Part shown: in pieces, positions 1,148-13,741 of the stretch | Layout: every line of letters starts with the position of its first letter | Numbering within the stretch: position 1 is the stretch's first letter | Source of the DNA: Alkalisalibacterium limincola | GTDB taxonomy: Bacteria; Pseudomonadota; Gammaproteobacteria; Xanthomonadales; Xanthomonadaceae | Direction: 5' to 3' | Assembly: GCF_008017755.1 (NCBI RefSeq) | Contig: NZ_VRTS01000002.1 | Span: 310,001-374,000, forward strand | DNA: 64,000 nt | Translations under genes and position numbers: made by a program | Notes under the pieces: generated by a model | The model's database searches: none | What the model saw: only the letters and a program-made list of their open reading frames with translations | What the model was told of the DNA's origin: nothing

Positions 1148-2082
1148 TCAGCCGAAGCGGCGGGCAAGGTCGGCGGCCGTGGGCATGGCCAGGGCCGCGC
1201 CGCGCCGCTCGGTCGACAGGCCGGCGTAGCGGCCGGCGAACACGATGGCATCGTCCAGGGGGGCGCCCTCTGACAGCCGGGCGCACAGGGCACCGTTGAA
1301 CGCATCGCCCGCGCCGGTCGAGTCGATGCAGTCCACCGCTTCGGCGGCGAACCGCGTGACCTGGCCGGAATCGACCAGCACGCAGCCGCCGGCGCCCAGC
1401 GTCACCAGCACGCGGGGGCAGGGCAGGACCGCGCAGGCGAGGGCCAGCGCTTCATCGTCCAGTCCCGCCACGGCCTCGGGCGCCACCTCCAGGCCATCGA
1501 AGCGGTGCATCAACGCACTGAACTCGCTTTCGTTGGGCGTGATCAGTTCGCAGGCCTGCAGCATCGCCGCGTCGACCTGAGCGTCGACGGGTGCGGGATT
1601 GAGTACGGTGAACAGGCCGCGTTCCCGGCCATGTTCCAGTGCGTGCCGGATTGCGCCCGCCGGCGACTCCAGCTGTGCCAGCAGCACCCGCGCGCCCGCG
1701 TGGCCGCCGATGGCGTCGGTGATGAAGGCGGGCGTCAGGTGCAGGTTCGCACCCAGGGCCACGACAATCAGGTTGCGGCCGGCTGCATCGACCAGCACCG
1801 CGGCGGTGCCCGAGGGCTGCGCCGGCACGGATTCGATTTCCAGCACGAGTTGGTTCTCCGCGGCCAGCGCGCGCGCAATGCCGGCGGCGGCGTCCTCGCC
1901 CAGCGCGCCGACGAAGCAGGTGGCCGCGCGGCGCGCACCGCCGCGATGGCCTGGTTGAAGCCCTTGCCGCCGGGCCCGCTGGCGTAGTGGCCGCTGCGGG
2001 TGGCGCCGGGTTCGGGCAGGCGTGCCGTGGTCCAGACGTGGTCGAGGTTGAACGAGCCGACGACGAGGACCCGGGCGGTCAT
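1148..2082 (-). CDS. rbsK: Ribokinase (PfkB family), one frameshift
   Basis: This PfkB-family kinase probably phosphorylates ribose or a nucleoside-derived sugar. The N-terminus reads VVGSFNLDHV and contains the substrate-binding GPGGKGFNQA. The C-terminus carries DSTGAGDAFNG with the catalytic Asp and anion hole. The two halves lie in different frames; the shift is near 1926-1933, where adding one G restores a continuous protein of about 311 residues, the usual length. Its ATG is 10 bases after the stop of the upstream nucleoside transporter, so the two are almost certainly one operon for nucleoside uptake and ribose salvage. The exact sugar is not determined; adenosine kinase-like activity is an alternative. 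Confidence 0.85.
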
Positions 2083-4622: not shown

Positions 4623-5201
4623 CTATCCCGGCAGGCCCTGCCAGGCGATCCATGCGGCGATGAGGGCGAAGAACGCGGCCGCGGCCCAGCGCACATGGTG
4701 CAGCGGGATGCGTGGCCCGGCGTGCTGGCCCAGCAGCACCACCGGCGCATTGGCCAGCAGCATGCCGAAGGTGGATCCGGCCACGACCTGCCACAGCGGG
4801 TCGTAGGTGGCGGCCAGCACGACGGTGGCCACTTGGGTCTTGTCCCCCATCTCCACCAGGAAGAAGGCCAGCGTGGTGGCGATGAAGGCGCTCCGGGCAC
4901 TGAGCGGCGGGGCATGCTCGTCGAGCTTGTCCGGCACCAGGGTCCACAGGGCCACCGCCAGGAAGCTGGCGGCCAGCAGCCAGCGCAGCACGCCGGCGCT
5001 GATCCAGTCCGCCACCCATGCGCCGACCCATCCGGCCAGGGCGTGGTTGAGCAGCGTGGCCACGAAGATGCCGGCGATGACCGCCCAGGGGCGGCGGAAG
5101 CGGGCGGCCAGCACCAGTGCCAGCAACTGCGTCTTGTCGCCGATCTCGGCGATCGCGACGGCCAGGGTCGAAATGATCAGGGTATTCAACGTGCGCTCCA
5201 T
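4623..5201 (-). CDS. GDT1/UPF0016 family Mn2+ exporter
   Basis: This is a 192-residue inner-membrane transporter of the TMEM165/GDT1 (UPF0016) family, whose bacterial members export manganese. It has two internally repeated halves of three membrane segments, each with the family signature: AEIGDKTQ (Glu about residue 19) and VEMGDKTQ (Glu about 117). The acidic residues bind the metal. The ATG giving MERTLNTL was chosen because upstream in-frame sequence lies inside a structured Mn riboswitch. The riboswitch strongly supports Mn2+ as substrate. Calling it MneA/MneP-like is inference; it is not the MntP family by sequence. Confidence 0.93.
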   Translation of the reverse strand: MERTLNTLIISTLAVAIAEIGDKTQLLALVLAARFRRPWAVIAGIFVATLLNHALAGWVGAWVADWISAGVLRWLLAASFLAVALWTLVPDKLDEHAPPLSARSAFIATTLAFFLVEMGDKTQVATVVLAATYDPLWQVVAGSTFGMLLANAPVVLLGQHAGPRIPLHHVRWAAAAFFALIAAWIAWQGLPG

Positions 5202-5203
5202 GG

Positions 5204-5375
5204 CCGGGCAAGACATGCGAAGACCCGCCTGCACGCCCGGCCGGGGGTGCACGCAGGTCTCCGGTCTTGCCCGGGGGATCGCGTCGATCCACCCCACGCG
5301 CCATGGCTGCTGCCAAGTGTGTTGACGCGTGGACCCCGCGCAGGGCGGGTGGGCTACTCCCCGAAGACAGGGAAA
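5204..5375 (-). promoter_or_regulatory. yybP-ykoY manganese riboswitch
   Basis: Read on the minus strand, the leader contains the hallmark blocks of this class in the right order: GGGGAGTAG (5354-5362), CGTCAACA (5320-5327) and GGGCAAGACC (5263-5272) followed by GGAGACC. The 3' part folds into a long hairpin with AGACC/GGTCT ends. An 11-base-pair perfect stem (arms 5264-5274 and 5204-5214) ends two bases before the exporter ATG, and no clear Shine-Dalgarno sequence lies outside it. Manganese is the known ligand of this class. Translational control by occlusion of the start region is my inference. Confidence 0.88.
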
Positions 5376-5476: not shown

Positions 5477-6511
5477 TCAGCTGCGACTTGCGTGCCGGCG
5501 ATCCGGGCGCAGCTGCAGCAGCCGGCCGATGGAATCCGCGGCCGGCGCGGTCAGGGTGACGTCGCGCGCCTCGCCGTCGCGCTGGATGCGCAGCGGGATC
5601 GACGTGCCGGAAGGGTGGCGCGACAGCTCGCGCATCGCTTCCGCCGGCGAGCCCACTTCGGTGCCGTCGATGCTGAGGATCACATCGCCGGCTTCGAGCC
5701 CTTGCAGGCGCGAATCACTGGAAACGACCAGCACGCCGCGGTCCACGCCGAAGTAGCGGCCGAGGCCGGCTTCCACCGTGGCCAGGTTCAACGCGCGCCA
5801 GCGCAGGGCCTCCCTGAGCCGCGGTGCGCGGCATTCGCCATCCACGTCCTCCCCGCAGCCGGCGAAGGGCAGGATCGGACCGATGTGCAGGTCGAGATCG
5901 GGTGGCACCAGGCCCAGGTCGCGCAGGTTGCCCAGCGACTGCAGGCGCTCGCGCACGTGGGTGTCGATGACGGCGTCCAAGCCGCCTGCCCACAGCGAGG
6001 ACGGCATCGTGCGCGCCTGCAGGCCAAGCTGGAGCACCTCGCCATCGCGACGCACGAGCAGGGTGACGCTCTGTCCGTCCTCGAGGCCCGAAAGGTGCTC
6101 GCGGGCCTGGCGTACCCGCCCGGCGGCGTCGGCGTCGGAAAGCAGGTGGCCGTCGATGGATTCGATCACGTCGCCCGACCGCAGGCCGGCTTCGGCGGCC
6201 GGACCTTCGGGTGTGACTCCCCGCACCGCCACGCCACCTGCGGGCCCGCCGCCGAGCACCACGCCCAGTCGCGGTCGATCGCCGCCAACCAGTTGCATGT
6301 GTTCGATCGAGATGCGCTGTGCATCTTGTCCGAGTCGCTGGCTGAGCTGGGCCAGCCGACGCGCGGCGTCGGCCAGGTCGCGGCGGGCTTCGGCCAGCTC
6401 CGACGCGGTGGCGGAGTCGTCCGGGTCCTGGACAGCGGCGGGGGCCGCGGGACTGAAGGCCATGACTGCGCTCGCCAGGGCGGCGTAAAGGATGGTCCTG
6501 ATGTGGTTCAT
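5477..6511 (-). CDS. Exported protein with two PDZ domains and no protease domain
   Basis: This 344-residue protein has an N-terminal signal peptide (hydrophobic to about residue 25, cleavage near PAAPAAVQD), a short coiled-coil-like helical stretch (about 35-70, rich in Ala/Arg/Leu), a first PDZ domain (about 80-170, with AAEAGLRSGDVI) and a second PDZ domain (about 255-325, with GLEAGDVILSIDG). PDZ domains bind C-terminal peptides of unfolded or membrane proteins. No trypsin-like catalytic triad or GNSGG motif is present, so it is not DegP/MucD itself. It follows an ECF sigma factor and a one-TM protein, apparently in one operon, so a periplasmic sensing or chaperone role in that stress system is plausible. 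Function is otherwise unknown. Confidence 0.85.
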   Translation of the reverse strand: MNHIRTILYAALASAVMAFSPAAPAAVQDPDDSATASELAEARRDLADAARRLAQLSQRLGQDAQRISIEHMQLVGGDRPRLGVVLGGGPAGGVAVRGVTPEGPAAEAGLRSGDVIESIDGHLLSDADAAGRVRQAREHLSGLEDGQSVTLLVRRDGEVLQLGLQARTMPSSLWAGGLDAVIDTHVRERLQSLGNLRDLGLVPPDLDLHIGPILPFAGCGEDVDGECRAPRLREALRWRALNLATVEAGLGRYFGVDRGVLVVSSDSRLQGLEAGDVILSIDGTEVGSPAEAMRELSRHPSGTSIPLRIQRDGEARDVTLTAPAADSIGRLLQLRPDRRHASRS

Positions 6512-6538
6512 GTCGCGTCTCCAGGAGGGAACAATGGG

Positions 6539-7093
6539 TCAATCAAGGGCGAGCACGAGACCGCCGGAACCGGTGGCCGCGAGCGTCTCGTTCTGCCGAA
6601 GCCCGGCCAGTTCGGCGAGCAGCTCCACCCGTGCGTGCCACAGCGTCGCGACATCCTCGGGGCGCGCATCGGCGAGCGCGGCGTCGATGGCACCGATGTC
6701 CGCGGCAATCCACTCCGCGGCCAGCACGGCGCTGCCACTGCGCAAGGCCGGAGGCTGGGCGGCGAGGCTCGACTCCAGGGCCTGCGAGCGTTGCACCAGG
6801 GCCTCGACATCCGGCGCGGCCGCCGGCTCCGTGGTCACCGCGTCCATCGGGGCCAAGCCCGCGGGCGTGGTCGCGGGCTCGTGCAGCCGCGGCATCCAGA
6901 TCGCCACCAGCACGGCACTGGCCGCCACCGCCAGCCACAGGCCGGTGCGACGACGGCGTCGCGGCCGCCGCTTCAGTTGCGCGGCCACCTGCGGCCACAC
7001 CGGGCGCGGCGGCAGTTCGGGCGGTAGCGCGGCGAATGCGTCGCGCGCCGGCACGCGCTGCGGTGGCGGGGGTGGAAGCGTGGTGTCAGGCAT
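6539..7093 (-). CDS. Putative membrane anti-sigma factor (single TM)
   Basis: This 184-residue protein has a Pro-rich N-terminus, an amphipathic segment (about residues 24-42, with PVWPQVAAQL), a basic stretch KRRPRRRRRT, one membrane helix (about 51-67) and a periplasmic tail of about 115 residues rich in Ala, Leu and Glu. It overlaps the end of the sigma-factor gene by 8 bases, the usual arrangement for an anti-sigma factor. The zinc-binding HxxxCxxC motif of the common anti-sigma domain is absent, so assignment rests on position and topology rather than sequence family. It could instead be an accessory membrane protein. Confidence 0.65.
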   Translation of the reverse strand: MPDTTLPPPPPQRVPARDAFAALPPELPPRPVWPQVAAQLKRRPRRRRRTGLWLAVAASAVLVAIWMPRLHEPATTPAGLAPMDAVTTEPAAAPDVEALVQRSQALESSLAAQPPALRSGSAVLAAEWIAADIGAIDAALADARPEDVATLWHARVELLAELAGLRQNETLAATGSGGLVLALD

Positions 7094-7658
7094 GGTGGAC
7101 CTCCGTGCGGGTGACGCCCAGCAGCTCGCGCAGCTGGCTCAGTCCCCGCGAAACGCGTGATTTGGAGAAGCTGGCACCCTTGCCCATCAGTCGACCGATC
7201 TCCTCGTGGGTGTAACCCTCGCCGTGGTGCAACCACAGCACGGTGCGGGTGGTGTCGGGCAGGGCGTGGAGTGCCCGGCGCAGCAGGGCCGCGTCGGTGG
7301 CGGCGGCAGGCAGCCAGTCGGCATCGCGCTGGTCGTCGGGCTCGGGTTCGGGAGGGTCATCGCTGAACTGCAGCCGCTCGGCGCGGCGCAGGCGCATCAG
7401 CGCGGTATTGACCGCGATCTGTCGCAGCCAGCCCCAGAACGGCGCACTGCCCCGGAATCCGGCAATGCCCTCGAACACCTTCAGCATCGTGTCGTGCAGC
7501 ACTTCGCTCGCCTCGTCGGGATGGGCGGTCATGCGCAGGGCCAGCGTGTAGACCGGACGCTCGAAGTGCCGGTAGATCTCCGACCATGCCGCCTCGTCGC
7601 CGCGCCGGGCGGCGGCGATCAGGGTGTCGGGCAGGTCGATGGCGAAGGGGCTGCGCAT
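7086..7658 (-). CDS. ECF-type RNA polymerase sigma factor
   Basis: This is a sigma-70 family extracytoplasmic-function factor of about 190 residues. Region 2 is recognisable in HFERPVYTLALRMTAHP and the following DEASEVLHDTMLKVF. Region 4 carries the helix-turn-helix from LPDTTRTVLWLHH through YTHEEIGRLMG to KSRVSRGLSQL. I use the ATG at MRSPFAIDL; a start 24 codons upstream is possible. It is the first gene of a three-gene unit with a one-TM putative anti-sigma factor and a PDZ protein, resembling rpoE-rseA-mucD logic with different partners. It diverges from an iron transporter operon. Confidence 0.9.
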   Translation of the reverse strand: MRSPFAIDLPDTLIAAARRGDEAAWSEIYRHFERPVYTLALRMTAHPDEASEVLHDTMLKVFEGIAGFRGSAPFWGWLRQIAVNTALMRLRRAERLQFSDDPPEPEPDDQRDADWLPAAATDAALLRRALHALPDTTRTVLWLHHGEGYTHEEIGRLMGKGASFSKSRVSRGLSQLRELLGVTRTEVHHA

Positions 7659-7767
7659 GTCCACGTCCCATAGGATGCGCCGGACGCGGAAAGCGTCGCA
7701 GGTTTCCTGGGCCGGCGTACCGGTCCGCAAGAGCCGGGGAGCCGGAGGGCCATGTCTGCCCGAAAGA

Positions 7768-7799
7768 TCGTAATAGGAATTATTCGCAATAGCGTATGA
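7768..7799. promoter_or_regulatory. A/T-rich promoter region with weak Fur-like palindrome
   Basis: In a very G/C-rich setting this is an A/T island: GGAATTATTC and CGCAATAG are followed by TATGAT (7794-7799), a 5-of-6 match to a -10 hexamer reading rightward. The AATtATT core resembles the centre of a Fur box but the flanks match poorly. It may be the promoter for the iron transporter operon, the divergent sigma-factor operon, or both. No convincing -35 was found. Confidence 0.4.
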
Positions 7800-7860
7800 T
7801 GGGGCGTACGGCGCACGGCGTCCTCCTGGCCCTTGGGGCAGGTGGGTTTGCGTGACGCTT

Positions 7861-7879
7861 GCGAATGATTATCATTTGT
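7861..7879 (+). promoter_or_regulatory. Fur box upstream of the iron ABC transporter
   Basis: The 19-base site contains AATGATTATCATT, 13 consecutive matches to the centre of the classical Fur consensus. It lies 22 bases before the ATG of the substrate-binding lipoprotein and overlaps the likely 5' untranslated region or promoter. Iron-dependent repression by Fur of the transporter genes is the straightforward reading. Confidence 0.85.
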
Positions 7880-7900
7880 CCATTGCCCTAGGAGCCGTCG

Positions 7901-8971
7901 ATGTCCCAGCATTCCCGCACGTTTCTGGCCGCCGTCCTGCCCGGCGCGCTCGTGGCCCTCCTGGCGGGCTGCGGCCCCTCCGGCGAGGCCCCTTCGACGA
8001 CTGGCGGGGTGGACGACGCCCCATCGGAGCTGGTCGTGTACTCCGAGCGCCGCGAGCCGTTGATCCAGCCGGTCTTCGACCGCTACACCGAAGAGACCGG
8101 GATCCGCGTGCGCTACCTGACCGACACCACGCCGGTGCTGATCGAGCGCCTGGTGGCGGAAGGCGCGAACACCCGCGCCGACATCCTGATGGCGGTCGAC
8201 GCCGGCAACCTGTGGCAGGCCGCAGAGCGTGGCGTGCTGGCACCCTTGGCATCGCCCGAGCTCGAGTCCGCGATCCCGGCGAACTACCGCGACCCGGAGG
8301 GGCGGTGGTTCGGCCTGTCGCTGCGCGCCCGCACGATCGTGCATTCCACGCAGCGCGTGCAGCCCGGCGAGCTGTCGACCTACGAGGACCTGGCCGACCC
8401 GAAGTGGCGCGGCCGGCTGTGCCTGCGCTCCTCGCGCAAGGTCTACAACCAGTCCCTGACCGCCACGCTGATCGAGCGCCTGGGCGCCGAGCAGGCCGAG
8501 CAGGTGCTTGCCGGCTGGGTCGCCAACCTGGCCACGGATCCGTTTCCCGACGACACCATGCTGATCAATGCGGTCGCGGCGGGGCAGTGCGACGTGGGCA
8601 TCGTCAACACCTACTACTTCGGCCGCGTGCAGCGCGACAACCCGGATGTCCCGGTGGCGATCTTCTGGCCGAACCAGGGCGGCAGCGGCGCCAATGGCAG
8701 CGGCGTGCACGTGAACGTGTCCGGTGCCGGCATCACCGCGAACGCCCCGCACCCGGAAGCGGCGCGCGAATTCCTGGAGTGGCTGGCTTCCGAAGGGGTG
8801 CAAAAGCAGTTCGCCGAGGTGAACTTCGAGTTTCCCGCGCGCCGCGGCGTGGATGTCGACCCGCTGGTGGCGGCCTGGGGCGAGTTCGAGGCCGACCCGA
8901 TCGACGTGGTGGTCGCGGGCCGCAGGCAGTCCGAAGCGGTGCAGATGATGGACCGCGTGCGTTGGCGTTGA
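7901..8971 (+). CDS. Fe(3+) ABC transporter substrate-binding lipoprotein (FbpA/FutA family)
   Basis: This 356-residue periplasmic binding protein has a lipoprotein signal with lipobox LLAGC (Cys24). The mature part starts with the family pattern SELVVYSERREPLIQPVF, and the ferric-iron ligand region is visible as NTYYFGRV (tandem tyrosines, as in FbpA/FutA). The length and motifs fit class II ferric-binding proteins. An AGGAG ribosome site precedes the ATG, and a strong Fur box lies just upstream. The permease gene follows after 10 bases. Iron is the most likely cargo given the Fur site and the tyrosines. Confidence 0.93.
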   Translation: MSQHSRTFLAAVLPGALVALLAGCGPSGEAPSTTGGVDDAPSELVVYSERREPLIQPVFDRYTEETGIRVRYLTDTTPVLIERLVAEGANTRADILMAVDAGNLWQAAERGVLAPLASPELESAIPANYRDPEGRWFGLSLRARTIVHSTQRVQPGELSTYEDLADPKWRGRLCLRSSRKVYNQSLTATLIERLGAEQAEQVLAGWVANLATDPFPDDTMLINAVAAGQCDVGIVNTYYFGRVQRDNPDVPVAIFWPNQGGSGANGSGVHVNVSGAGITANAPHPEAAREFLEWLASEGVQKQFAEVNFEFPARRGVDVDPLVAAWGEFEADPIDVVVAGRRQSEAVQMMDRVRWR

Positions 8972-10568: not shown

Positions 10569-10677
10569 GGTCGAGGCCGCGGGCGTGACGGGTCCCGCCG
10601 GCCGGCTGGCGCGGTCTATGGAGCCTGCCGCCAACCTGCGATAATGGCGGTTTCCCGCTTCCAGCAAAGGCCGCCCC

Positions 10678-11783
10678 ATGTCGCAAGCCACGGTCCTCAA
10701 CGCCTCCCACCGCGCCCTCGGCGCGAAGATGGTCGATTTCGGCGGCTGGGACATGCCGATCAGCTATGGCTCGCAGATCGAGGAGCACCACGCCGTGCGT
10801 CGCGACGCCGGCATGTTCGATGTGTCGCACATGACCGTGGTCGACCTGCGTGGCGAACGCACGCGCGAGTTCCTGCGCCAGCTCGTCGCCAACAACATCG
10901 ACAAGCTCAAGAAGCCGGGCAAGGCGCTCTACACCTGCATGCTCAACGAGCGCGGGGGCGTCATCGACGACCTGATCGTGTACTTCATGGAAGAGTCCTG
11001 GTTCCGCATGGTGGTCAACGCCTCCACGCGCGAGAAGGACCTGGCCTGGATCACCCGGCATGCGGCGGCGTTCGGCGTCGAGGTGCGCGAGCGCGGGGAC
11101 CTCGGGATCATCGCGGTGCAGGGGCCGGCGGCGCGCGCGACCTTCATCGCCCTGCTCGACGGCGCGCCGCGGGCGTGGTCGGGGCGCTGGGCCGCTTCGC
11201 CGCCGCCCAGGTGGCCGGGCCGGACGGCGGCGAGCTGTTCGTCGCCCGGACCGGCTACACCGGCGAGGACGGCTTCGAGGTGGTGCTCGAACACGGGCAC
11301 GTGCCGGCGTTGTGGGAGCGCCTGCTGGCCGCCGGCGTGAAGCCCGCCGGCCTCGGCGCACGCGACACGCTCCGCCTGGAGGCGGGCATGAACCTCTACG
11401 GGCAGGACATGGACGAGACCGTGTCGCCGCTGGAGGCCGGCCTGGCCTGGACGGTGAGCTTCGACGAGGGCCGCGACTTCATCGGCCGCGCGGCGCTGGA
11501 GGCGCTCAAGTCGGCCGGGGTGGGCCGCCGGATGATCGGCATCGTCATGGACGAGAAGGGCGTGCTGCGTCACGGCCAGCGCGTGCTGTGCGCGGCGGGC
11601 GAGGGCGAGATCCTCTCGGGCACGTTCTCGCCGACCCTGGGCCGCGCCATCGCCTTCGCGCGGGTGCCCGCCGGCGAGCTGGGGGAGGTGCGGGTGGACA
11701 TCCGCGGCCGCGAGGTGCCGGTGCGCGTGGTGAAGCTGCCGTTCGTGCGCGAAGGCCAGGCGCAGGACGGCGTGCTGGCCTGA
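10678..11783 (+). CDS. gcvT: Glycine cleavage system aminomethyltransferase (T protein), one frameshift
   Basis: GcvT transfers the methylene group from the aminomethyl-lipoyl H protein to tetrahydrofolate and releases ammonia. The N-terminal part ([27 protein letters not shown]) and C-terminal part ([33 protein letters not shown], with the catalytic Asp of the [10 protein letters not shown] region) are both well conserved but sit in different frames. The shift is at 11171-11173 (CGGGC); one extra G restores a protein of about 368 residues, the normal length. An A/T-rich GATAAT-like -10 element lies about 40 bases upstream. It heads the cluster gcvT-gcvH-gcvPA. Confidence 0.92.
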
Positions 11784-12374: not shown

Positions 12375-13741
12375 ATGCCGTTCATTCCCCATAGTGATGC
12401 CGACGTCCGCACCATGCTCGAGGCCATTGGCGTCGACAGCATCGAGGACCTGTTCGACGAGATTCCCGCCGAGCTCAAGATCGAAGGGCTGGCCGGCGTG
12501 CCCGACGGCCTCAACGAGATGGCGATCAATCGGCTGATGGCCGAGCGCGCGCGCCTGGACGAGGCCCACCTGAACTTCGCCGGCGCCGGTGCCTACGAGC
12601 ACCACATCCCGGCGGCGGTCTGGCAGATCGTCTCGCGTGGCGAGTACTACTCCGCCTACACGCCGTACCAGGCCGAGGCCAGCCAGGGCAACCTGCAGCT
12701 GATCTACGAATACCAGACGATGATGACCCGCCTGACGGGCATGGACGTCTCCAACGCCTCGATGTACGACGGTGCCACGGCGCTGGCCGAGGCGATCCTG
12801 ATGGCCGAGCGGACCCAGCGGCGCAACGCCAAGCGCGCGTGCTGATGCCGGTGTCGGTGCACCCCGCCTACCGCAAGACGGTCCGTTCGATCCTGGAGCT
12901 CCAGGGCATCGCGATCGAGGAGATCGATTGCCCGGACGGCCGCCTGGACGTTGCCGCGCTCGAGAAGCTGGACGGCGAGTTCACCAGCCTGGTCGTGCCG
13001 CAGCCGAACTTCTTCGGCGTGCTCGAGGACGTCGACGCGCTGACCGATTTCGCCCACGCACGCGGCGCCCTGGTCATCGCGGTGGTCAACCCGATGAGCC
13101 TGGCGGTGCTCAAGGCGCCCGGGCAGTGGGGCAGCGAGGTCGAGGGCCTGCGCGGCGCCGATATCGTCTGTGGAGAAGGCCAGCCGATGGGTGTGCCGCT
13201 GTCTTCCGGCGGCCCCTACTTCGGCCTGCTCGCCTGCCGCCAGGCGTTGGTGCGCGACCTGCCCGGTCGCATCGTCGGCCGCACCACCGACCTGGACGGC
13301 AAGCCCGGTTTCGCGCTGACGCTGCAGGCGCGCGAGCAGCACATCCGCCGCGCCAAGGCCACGTCGAACATCTGCACCAACCAGGGTCTCCTGGTCACGG
13401 CGGCGACGATCTACATGGCGCTGATCGGGCCGGAGGGCCTCACGCGCGTGGCCGCCCAGTCCATGGCGAACACCCGCAAGCTGCGGGCACGGCTGGAACG
13501 CATCAGTGGCGTGCGGGCACTGTTCCCGGAGCAGGTCCATTTCCACGAGGTGGCGTTGCAGCTGCCGCGCCCGGCAAGCGAAATCATCGAGCGTCTTGCC
13601 GCCCAGCGCATCGTCGCCGGCGTGGCGATCGGCGAGGAGTATCCCGGCCTCGGTGACGCGCTCCTGGTGTGTGCCACCGAGACCAAGACCGACGACGACA
13701 TCGAGCAGTTCGCGCAGGCACTGGCCGCCGCGCTGGACTGA
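12375..13741 (+). CDS. gcvPA: Glycine dehydrogenase (decarboxylating) subunit 1, one frameshift
   Basis: This is the N-terminal-half subunit of the split P protein, which with GcvPB decarboxylates glycine and loads the aminomethyl group on GcvH. Conserved stretches are [25 protein letters not shown], the [14 protein letters not shown] motif and [11 protein letters not shown]. The reading frame breaks near 12833-12841; one added base gives [12 protein letters not shown] and a protein of about 455 residues, the standard GcvPA length. No GcvPB (the PLP-binding subunit) follows it here, as the downstream 736 bases hold no gene. Confidence 0.9.

What the first reader, a model, noticed from the sequence alone, without database searches (positions are those of the whole stretch)
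5477..7658. ECF sigma factor with a non-zinc one-TM partner and a protease-less double-PDZ protein
The order sigma - membrane protein - periplasmic PDZ protein mimics rpoE-rseA-mucD, but the second gene lacks the zinc anti-sigma motif and the third has PDZ domains with no trypsin-like domain. The PDZ protein could sense misfolded C-termini and act on the one-TM partner, giving a signalling branch unlike the standard DegS route.
Basis: partly seen in the sequence, partly recalled or inferred. Interest (0 to 1): 0.6.

Follow-up and report, generated by a model that had tools for sequence, protein, structure and literature searches.

The report
Sigma factor switch with PDZ partner
Three neighbouring genes, inherited together by many Lysobacter-like bacteria, look like a self-contained stress switch in which a gene activator is held at the membrane by a partner whose tail a PDZ protein probably grips, separate from the textbook envelope-stress system of the same cell.

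Summary
In detail: sigma 7658..7086, one-TM protein 7093..6539 and exported double-PDZ protein 6511..5477, all on the minus strand. The trio is conserved: 73 of 80 named sigma orthologs carry both partners, and 6 of the other 7 are contig ends. A canonical rpoE-rseA-mucD operon lies elsewhere in this genome, so this is a second system. The one-TM protein is very probably an anti-sigma factor: short zinc-less cytoplasmic domain of two helices, with profile relatives in 3 of 12 more distant loci that carry the zinc motif Hx3Cx2C. Missing zinc is no contrast with RseA, which lacks it too. New here: (1) TGCGAC-N16-GCATC stands exactly upstream of sigma in 78 of 80 loci, mostly 8-12 nt before the start codon, implying autoregulation and a nearly leaderless mRNA. 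(2) The same site precedes a few exported or envelope genes in relatives, and in some the PDZ gene. (3) The anti-sigma C-terminus is conserved and often PDZ-ligand-like. PDZ binding to that tail is inferred; the covariation test was uninformative and no complex could be modelled.

The parts
7674..7700 (-). Autoregulatory promoter element TGCGAC-N16-GCATC (-35 at 7700..7695, -10 at 7678..7674)
   Evidence: Exact in 78 of 80 named loci at the same place; own-genome place C13:317674-317700 = window 7674-7700
7086..7664 (-). ECF sigma factor gene; likely GTG start at 7664 (ATG at 7658)
   Evidence: Pfam Sigma70_r2, Sigma70_r4_2; orthologs about 50-61% identical; start from alignment with relatives and promoter distance
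6539..7093 (-). One-TM anti-sigma factor (predicted), 184 aa
   Evidence: Overlaps the sigma stop by 8 nt; partner found in 74 of 80 loci; profile relatives with Hx3Cx2C
6968..7048 (-). Short cytoplasmic sigma-binding region (predicted), residues 16-42, two helices
   Evidence: AlphaFold helices 16-21 and 33-42; conserved A[LF]xxLPxxxPxxxxW
6884..6940 (-). Transmembrane helix, residues 52-70
   Evidence: Hydropathy and model
6572..6808 (-). Periplasmic three-helix domain of the anti-sigma, residues 96-174
   Evidence: Model pLDDT mostly 85-98; conserved S, LE, D, LW, RV positions
6542..6571 (-). Conserved C-terminal tail of the anti-sigma (here ...GGLVLALD), candidate PDZ ligand
   Evidence: Right-end conservation in 62 non-redundant relatives
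5477..6511 (-). Exported double-PDZ protein without protease domain, 344 aa
   Evidence: Pfam, model, Foldseek
6287..6418 (-). Long helix, residues 32-75 of the PDZ protein
   Evidence: Model
6014..6274 (-). PDZ1, about residues 80-166
   Evidence: Pfam PDZ_2 at 91-162; model pLDDT over 90
5543..5794 (-). PDZ2, about residues 240-323
   Evidence: Second PDZ stretch; model pLDDT over 80

Best explanation
The trio is a dedicated sigma / anti-sigma / periplasmic-regulator module, separate from rpoE-rseA-mucD. The one-TM protein holds the sigma factor at the inner membrane with a short zinc-less cytoplasmic domain (inferred from homology and anatomy). In the periplasm the PDZ protein grips the anti-sigma's conserved C-terminal tail and sets its stability, most likely shielding it as RseB shields RseA (inferred). 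When the grip is lost, for example when C-termini of misfolded or mislocalised proteins compete for the groove, the cell's general intramembrane-proteolysis enzymes destroy the anti-sigma (inferred). Freed sigma transcribes its own operon from TGCGAC-N16-GCATC as a nearly leaderless mRNA, plus a small lineage-specific set of exported hydrolases, MacA/MacB-type genes and, in some genera, the PDZ gene from its own promoter (sites shown by computation; activity not shown).
For: Both partners in 73 of 80 named sigma loci and all three genes in 12 of 12 more distant loci examined. Overlapping sigma/partner genes. Profile relatives of the partner with Hx3Cx2C in 3 of these 12. Separate canonical operon. 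Promoter exact in 78 of 80. Second promoter copy before the PDZ gene in L159 and L160 and inside the partner gene in 5 loci. Conserved partner tail, hydrophobic last residue in 12 of 12 distant loci. HtrA-type PDZ pair by fold. Precedent for the three-part plan: SigAb-AabA-AabB (PMC12153292, passages).
Against: No binding shown. Covariation of the tail with PDZ columns is no better than with sigma columns. The window's tail ends in D, and 27 of 62 relatives end in D/N, unusual for a PDZ ligand. No sequence or fold match of the partner to a known anti-sigma structure, and Pfam matches none of the three zinc-motif relatives to an anti-sigma family. In the own genome the regulon may be only the operon itself. 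Function of the promoter is inferred from conservation.
Confidence: 0.5

Rival explanations
1. The PDZ protein is an adaptor, not a shield: it binds the anti-sigma tail or misfolded clients and delivers the anti-sigma to a site-1 protease, so it activates sigma.
For: Same anatomy and tail; HtrA, M50 and other proteases are encoded elsewhere in the genome; S41 peptidases are among candidate targets in relatives.
Against: The PDZ gene is co-transcribed and in some genera has its own sigma site, which fits a damping role at least as well; sign cannot be read from sequence.
Confidence: 0.2
2. The PDZ protein is only an effector of the response (a periplasmic chaperone or scaffold); it does not act on the anti-sigma, whose tail serves another protein such as a tail-specific protease.
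For: Sigma sites before the PDZ gene itself; no tail/PDZ covariation beyond phylogeny; D/N tails in 27 of 62.
Against: Fixed linkage of tail-bearing partner and PDZ protein in 73 of 80 named loci and 12 of 12 distant ones.
Confidence: 0.2
3. The one-TM protein is not an anti-sigma factor but, for example, a co-activator or an unrelated envelope protein.
For: No Pfam anti-sigma match above cut-off; no PDB relative by sequence.
Against: Profile relatives with the zinc anti-sigma motif next to related sigmas; overlapping genes; conserved short cytoplasmic domain.
Confidence: 0.08

Closest known systems
RpoE-RseA-RseB / MucD envelope-stress system
   Same: ECF sigma, one-TM zinc-less partner, periplasmic third protein in one operon
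   Different: Sigma far below the RpoE equivalog cut-off; third protein is a protease-free PDZ pair, not RseB or MucD; a canonical operon is present separately
SigAb-AabA-AabB of Acinetobacter baumannii (PMC12153292, passages)
   Same: Sigma, small one-TM anti-sigma compared there with CnrY, exported third protein; overlapping genes; autoregulation; very few direct targets
   Different: The term PDZ does not occur in the main text of that paper; different promoter and lineage; no homology was tested here
CnrH-CnrY-CnrX (named in PMC7406223 and PMC12153292, passages; role of CnrX recalled)
   Same: Short two-helix anti-sigma cytoplasmic domain and a periplasmic sensor
   Different: CnrX is a metal sensor (recalled), not a PDZ protein; no sequence match to CnrY
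DegS / AlgW
   Same: Related PDZ domains; there a C-terminal peptide is the signal (PMC8545111, passages)
   Different: Here no protease is attached, and the conserved C-terminus belongs to the anti-sigma itself

Membership tests
ECF sigma factor | Sigma-70 regions 2 and 4 without region 3 | tested here: met
   regions 2 and 4 over cut-off, no region-3 match; 190 aa
RpoE equivalog (TIGR02939) | Score over the curated cut-off | tested here: not met
   64 bits against 236.15
rpoE-rseA-mucD operon | Third gene with trypsin-like protease domain | tested here: not met
   such an operon is elsewhere in the genome
Zinc-binding class I anti-sigma (ZAS) | Hx3Cx2C in the cytoplasmic domain | tested here: not met
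   0 of 75 in the window's group; 3 of 12 distant relatives have it
Class II anti-sigma (CnrY-like) | Cytoplasmic domain of under about 50 residues with two helices | tested here: met
   features as given in PMC7406223 (passages)
Class II anti-sigma (CnrY-like) | Sequence relationship to CnrY | tested here: not met
   No CnrY chain among PDB matches up to E 10; short domains may escape detection
Anti-sigma factor (any class) | Binds and inhibits the cognate sigma | not testable with these tools
   Complex model not possible
RseB/MucB | MucB/RseB domains | tested here: not met
   No such Pfam match
HtrA protease (DegS/DegP/AlgW) | Trypsin-like catalytic domain | tested here: not met

The most novel reading that the evidence does not exclude
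The anti-sigma factor carries its own PDZ ligand as a conserved C-terminal latch, and a protease-free double-PDZ protein made from the same operon holds that latch. Free C-termini in the periplasm compete for the PDZ grooves, so occupancy of the PDZ protein, not activation of a PDZ-bearing protease, is what switches the sigma factor on; a near-leaderless autoregulated operon makes the loop fast.
Probability: 0.3. Interest if true: 0.75.

Novelty: new variant of a known kind. Interest (0 to 1): 0.5.

Why it matters
A PDZ protein that reads C-termini without cutting anything would split the sensing and cutting jobs that DegS and AlgW join in one molecule. The module is widespread in Lysobacterales, has a very sharp promoter signature that makes its regulon computable, and offers a clean test of whether an anti-sigma factor can use its own C-terminus as the switch. 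The conserved promoter-to-start spacing also predicts short-leader transcripts, a checkable claim.

Tried and rejected
Covariation of the anti-sigma C-terminal class with PDZ columns: best PDZ column 0.457 bits, best sigma column 0.45, so phylogeny can explain it. PDB search with the anti-sigma profile: no anti-sigma relative. Foldseek with the anti-sigma model: nothing at E 0.001. Alignment A4 laid partner rows on sigma and was dropped. A loose pattern in the own genome gave 11 hits against a control of 6 and was not used for the regulon. The argument 'zinc-less, hence unlike RseA' was rejected. The direction of the zinc-motif change was left open: 2 changes on a quick sigma tree with long branches. 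The published ECF re-classification paper (recalled) was not among the listings I saw, so whether this sigma already has a group number is unknown. Literature searches; none of the listings or passages I saw describes this trio, and I read passages only of PMC8103513, PMC7406223, PMC6085468, PMC12153292 and PMC8545111.

Full report
Anatomy. On the minus strand lie sigma (7658..7086), a one-TM protein (7093..6539) and an exported double-PDZ protein (6511..5477). Sigma matches Pfam regions 2 and 4 and reaches only 64 bits on the RpoE equivalog model, whose cut-off is 236. The PDZ protein has two PDZ domains and no protease domain. The one-TM protein has no family above a curated cut-off.

Conservation. 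In 60 genomes (the window's own and 59 relatives) sigma orthologs of about 50-61% identity are common but not universal. A scan of genome contigs gave 80 named loci, the best of 219 found: Arenimonas, Pseudoxanthomonas, Lysobacter, Luteimonas, Chiayiivirga, Silanimonas, Dokdonella, Tahibacter, Rudaea, Oleiagrimonas and MAGs. A one-TM partner was found in 74 of 80, a PDZ relative in 74 of 80, both in 73 of 80. Of the 7 others, 6 have only 50 to 1013 nt of contig left after sigma, and L043 has the PDZ gene but no partner by my filter. The partner starts 8 nt before the end of the sigma stop codon in 48 of 74 and 4 nt before it in 16.

Not the canonical system. The same genome has an operon that reads as rpoE, rseA, rseC-like and mucD at G000:C11 (L208; the rseA and rseC names rest on my reading of the sequences; the HtrA domain is). 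One M50 protease (RseP type) and further trypsin-like hits lie elsewhere.

The partner as anti-sigma. Its cytoplasmic part is about 50 residues with the motif A[LF]xxLPxxxPxxxxW, present in 68 of 75 by a loose pattern. AlphaFold gives two short helices, a TM helix and a confident periplasmic three-helix domain. I chose 12 more distant loci: the 5 hits outside the window's order, and 7 lower-scoring sigmas from the table. Profile searches found sigma, partner and PDZ matches in all 12. Three of these partners carry Hx3Cx2C, the signature used for zinc anti-sigma domains in PMC7406223 (passages), though Pfam matched none of the three to an anti-sigma family. So the window's protein looks like a reduced member of an anti-sigma lineage; the direction of that change is not settled.

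The tail. Among 62 non-redundant partners (of 75) the last six residues are conserved, mostly A-L-V at -6 to -4. The last residue is Y/F/H in 30, D/N in 27, L or Q in 5; Y and F together make up 1.4% of the rest of the periplasmic part. In the 12 distant loci all tails end in I, L, F or Y; as controls, PDZ proteins of the named set end in a hydrophobic residue in 22 of 69 and sigmas in 5 of 81. With a PDZ protein next door, PDZ-ligand function is the simplest reading. Against it: the window's own tail ends in D; there is no covariation signal beyond phylogeny; and no complex could be modelled.

The PDZ protein. Model: signal helix, long helix 32-75, PDZ1, loose linker with Cys 219 and 227, PDZ2. 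At least two Cys occur in 46 of 75. Foldseek finds DegQ/DegP PDZ pairs, the RseP PDZ tandem and the DegS and AlgW PDZ domains.

Promoter. TGCGAC-N16-GCATC stands exactly upstream of sigma in 78 of 80 loci, which used a cruder start, the two misses L044 and L103 show one mismatch each. Shuffled regions gave 0 per 80. The first in-frame start codon lies 8-12 nt after it in 65 of 78. ECF transcripts usually start a few bases after the -10 element (recalled), so the mRNA should have almost no leader. In the window this points to GTG 7664 as the start. The five out-of-order loci L214-L218 carry the same element; L219-L225 do not.

Regulon. With TGCGACNNTTTN11GCATC 135 of 395 family genomes have a match; a slightly looser form matched in 63 of 119 genomes, with the reversed control pattern rare. 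I fetched 40 stretches, mostly from genomes with more than one hit, not all hits. Second sites stand before the PDZ gene in L159 and L160. Of 27 sites away from the operon, 6 precede HlyD/MacA-type genes, 1 a MacB-like ABC gene, 3 S41 peptidases, 4 FmdA_AmdA-type proteins, 2 DUF5700 putative zinc peptidases, 2 beta-lactamase-family proteins and 1 an aspartyl protease; 8 had no clear target. Pfam supports 15 of these 19; L161, L164, L167 and L189 are assigned by likeness to a scanned relative. 'MacA' and 'MacB' are my names for the HlyD-type and ABC matches. In the own genome only the operon's site is exact, with one 1-mismatch site besides, so the window's regulon may be the operon alone. Five loci have a second exact site inside the partner gene, a possible inner promoter for the PDZ gene.

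Mechanism and verdict. Shown by computation: the conserved trio, the promoter element, the tail, the separate canonical system. Inferred: sigma binding, PDZ-tail binding, shielding and competition, proteolytic release. Precedents for the three-part plan are SigAb-AabA-AabB (PMC12153292, passages) and CnrH-CnrY-CnrX (named there and in PMC7406223, passages). I rate it a new variant of a known kind, interest 0.5.

Noticed in passing
window 5273-5374 (-): Mn2+ riboswitch (yybP-ykoY, Rfam RF00080, 50.1 bits) upstream of a small membrane protein gene at about 4623-5204 (-) that reads like the TMEM165/GDT1 family (name recalled).
   Followed up: partly
window 7780-7900 (+): The region between the sigma promoter and the divergent iron-type solute-binding gene at 7901 has A+T-rich palindromic stretches (such as aatgattatcattt) that resemble Fur sites; not tested.
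   Followed up: no
window 1148-2082, 10644-11783, 12375-13741; L202 (own genome C15): Several genes read as two overlapping frames (a sugar-kinase-like gene, gcvT-like, gcvPA-like, and a DegS-like HtrA gene at C15), which suggests frameshift errors or broken genes in this draft genome. The trio itself is intact.
   Followed up: partly
L060, L098, L099, L100, L104: A second exact TGCGAC-N16-GCATC lies inside the anti-sigma gene, downstream of the sigma gene and before the PDZ gene; perhaps an inner promoter.
   Followed up: partly
L219, L220, L221, L223: A related trio: lower-identity sigma, anti-sigma-profile protein and a third protein with one PDZ domain plus a C-terminal part without Pfam match, lacking the TGCGAC promoter.
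   Followed up: partly
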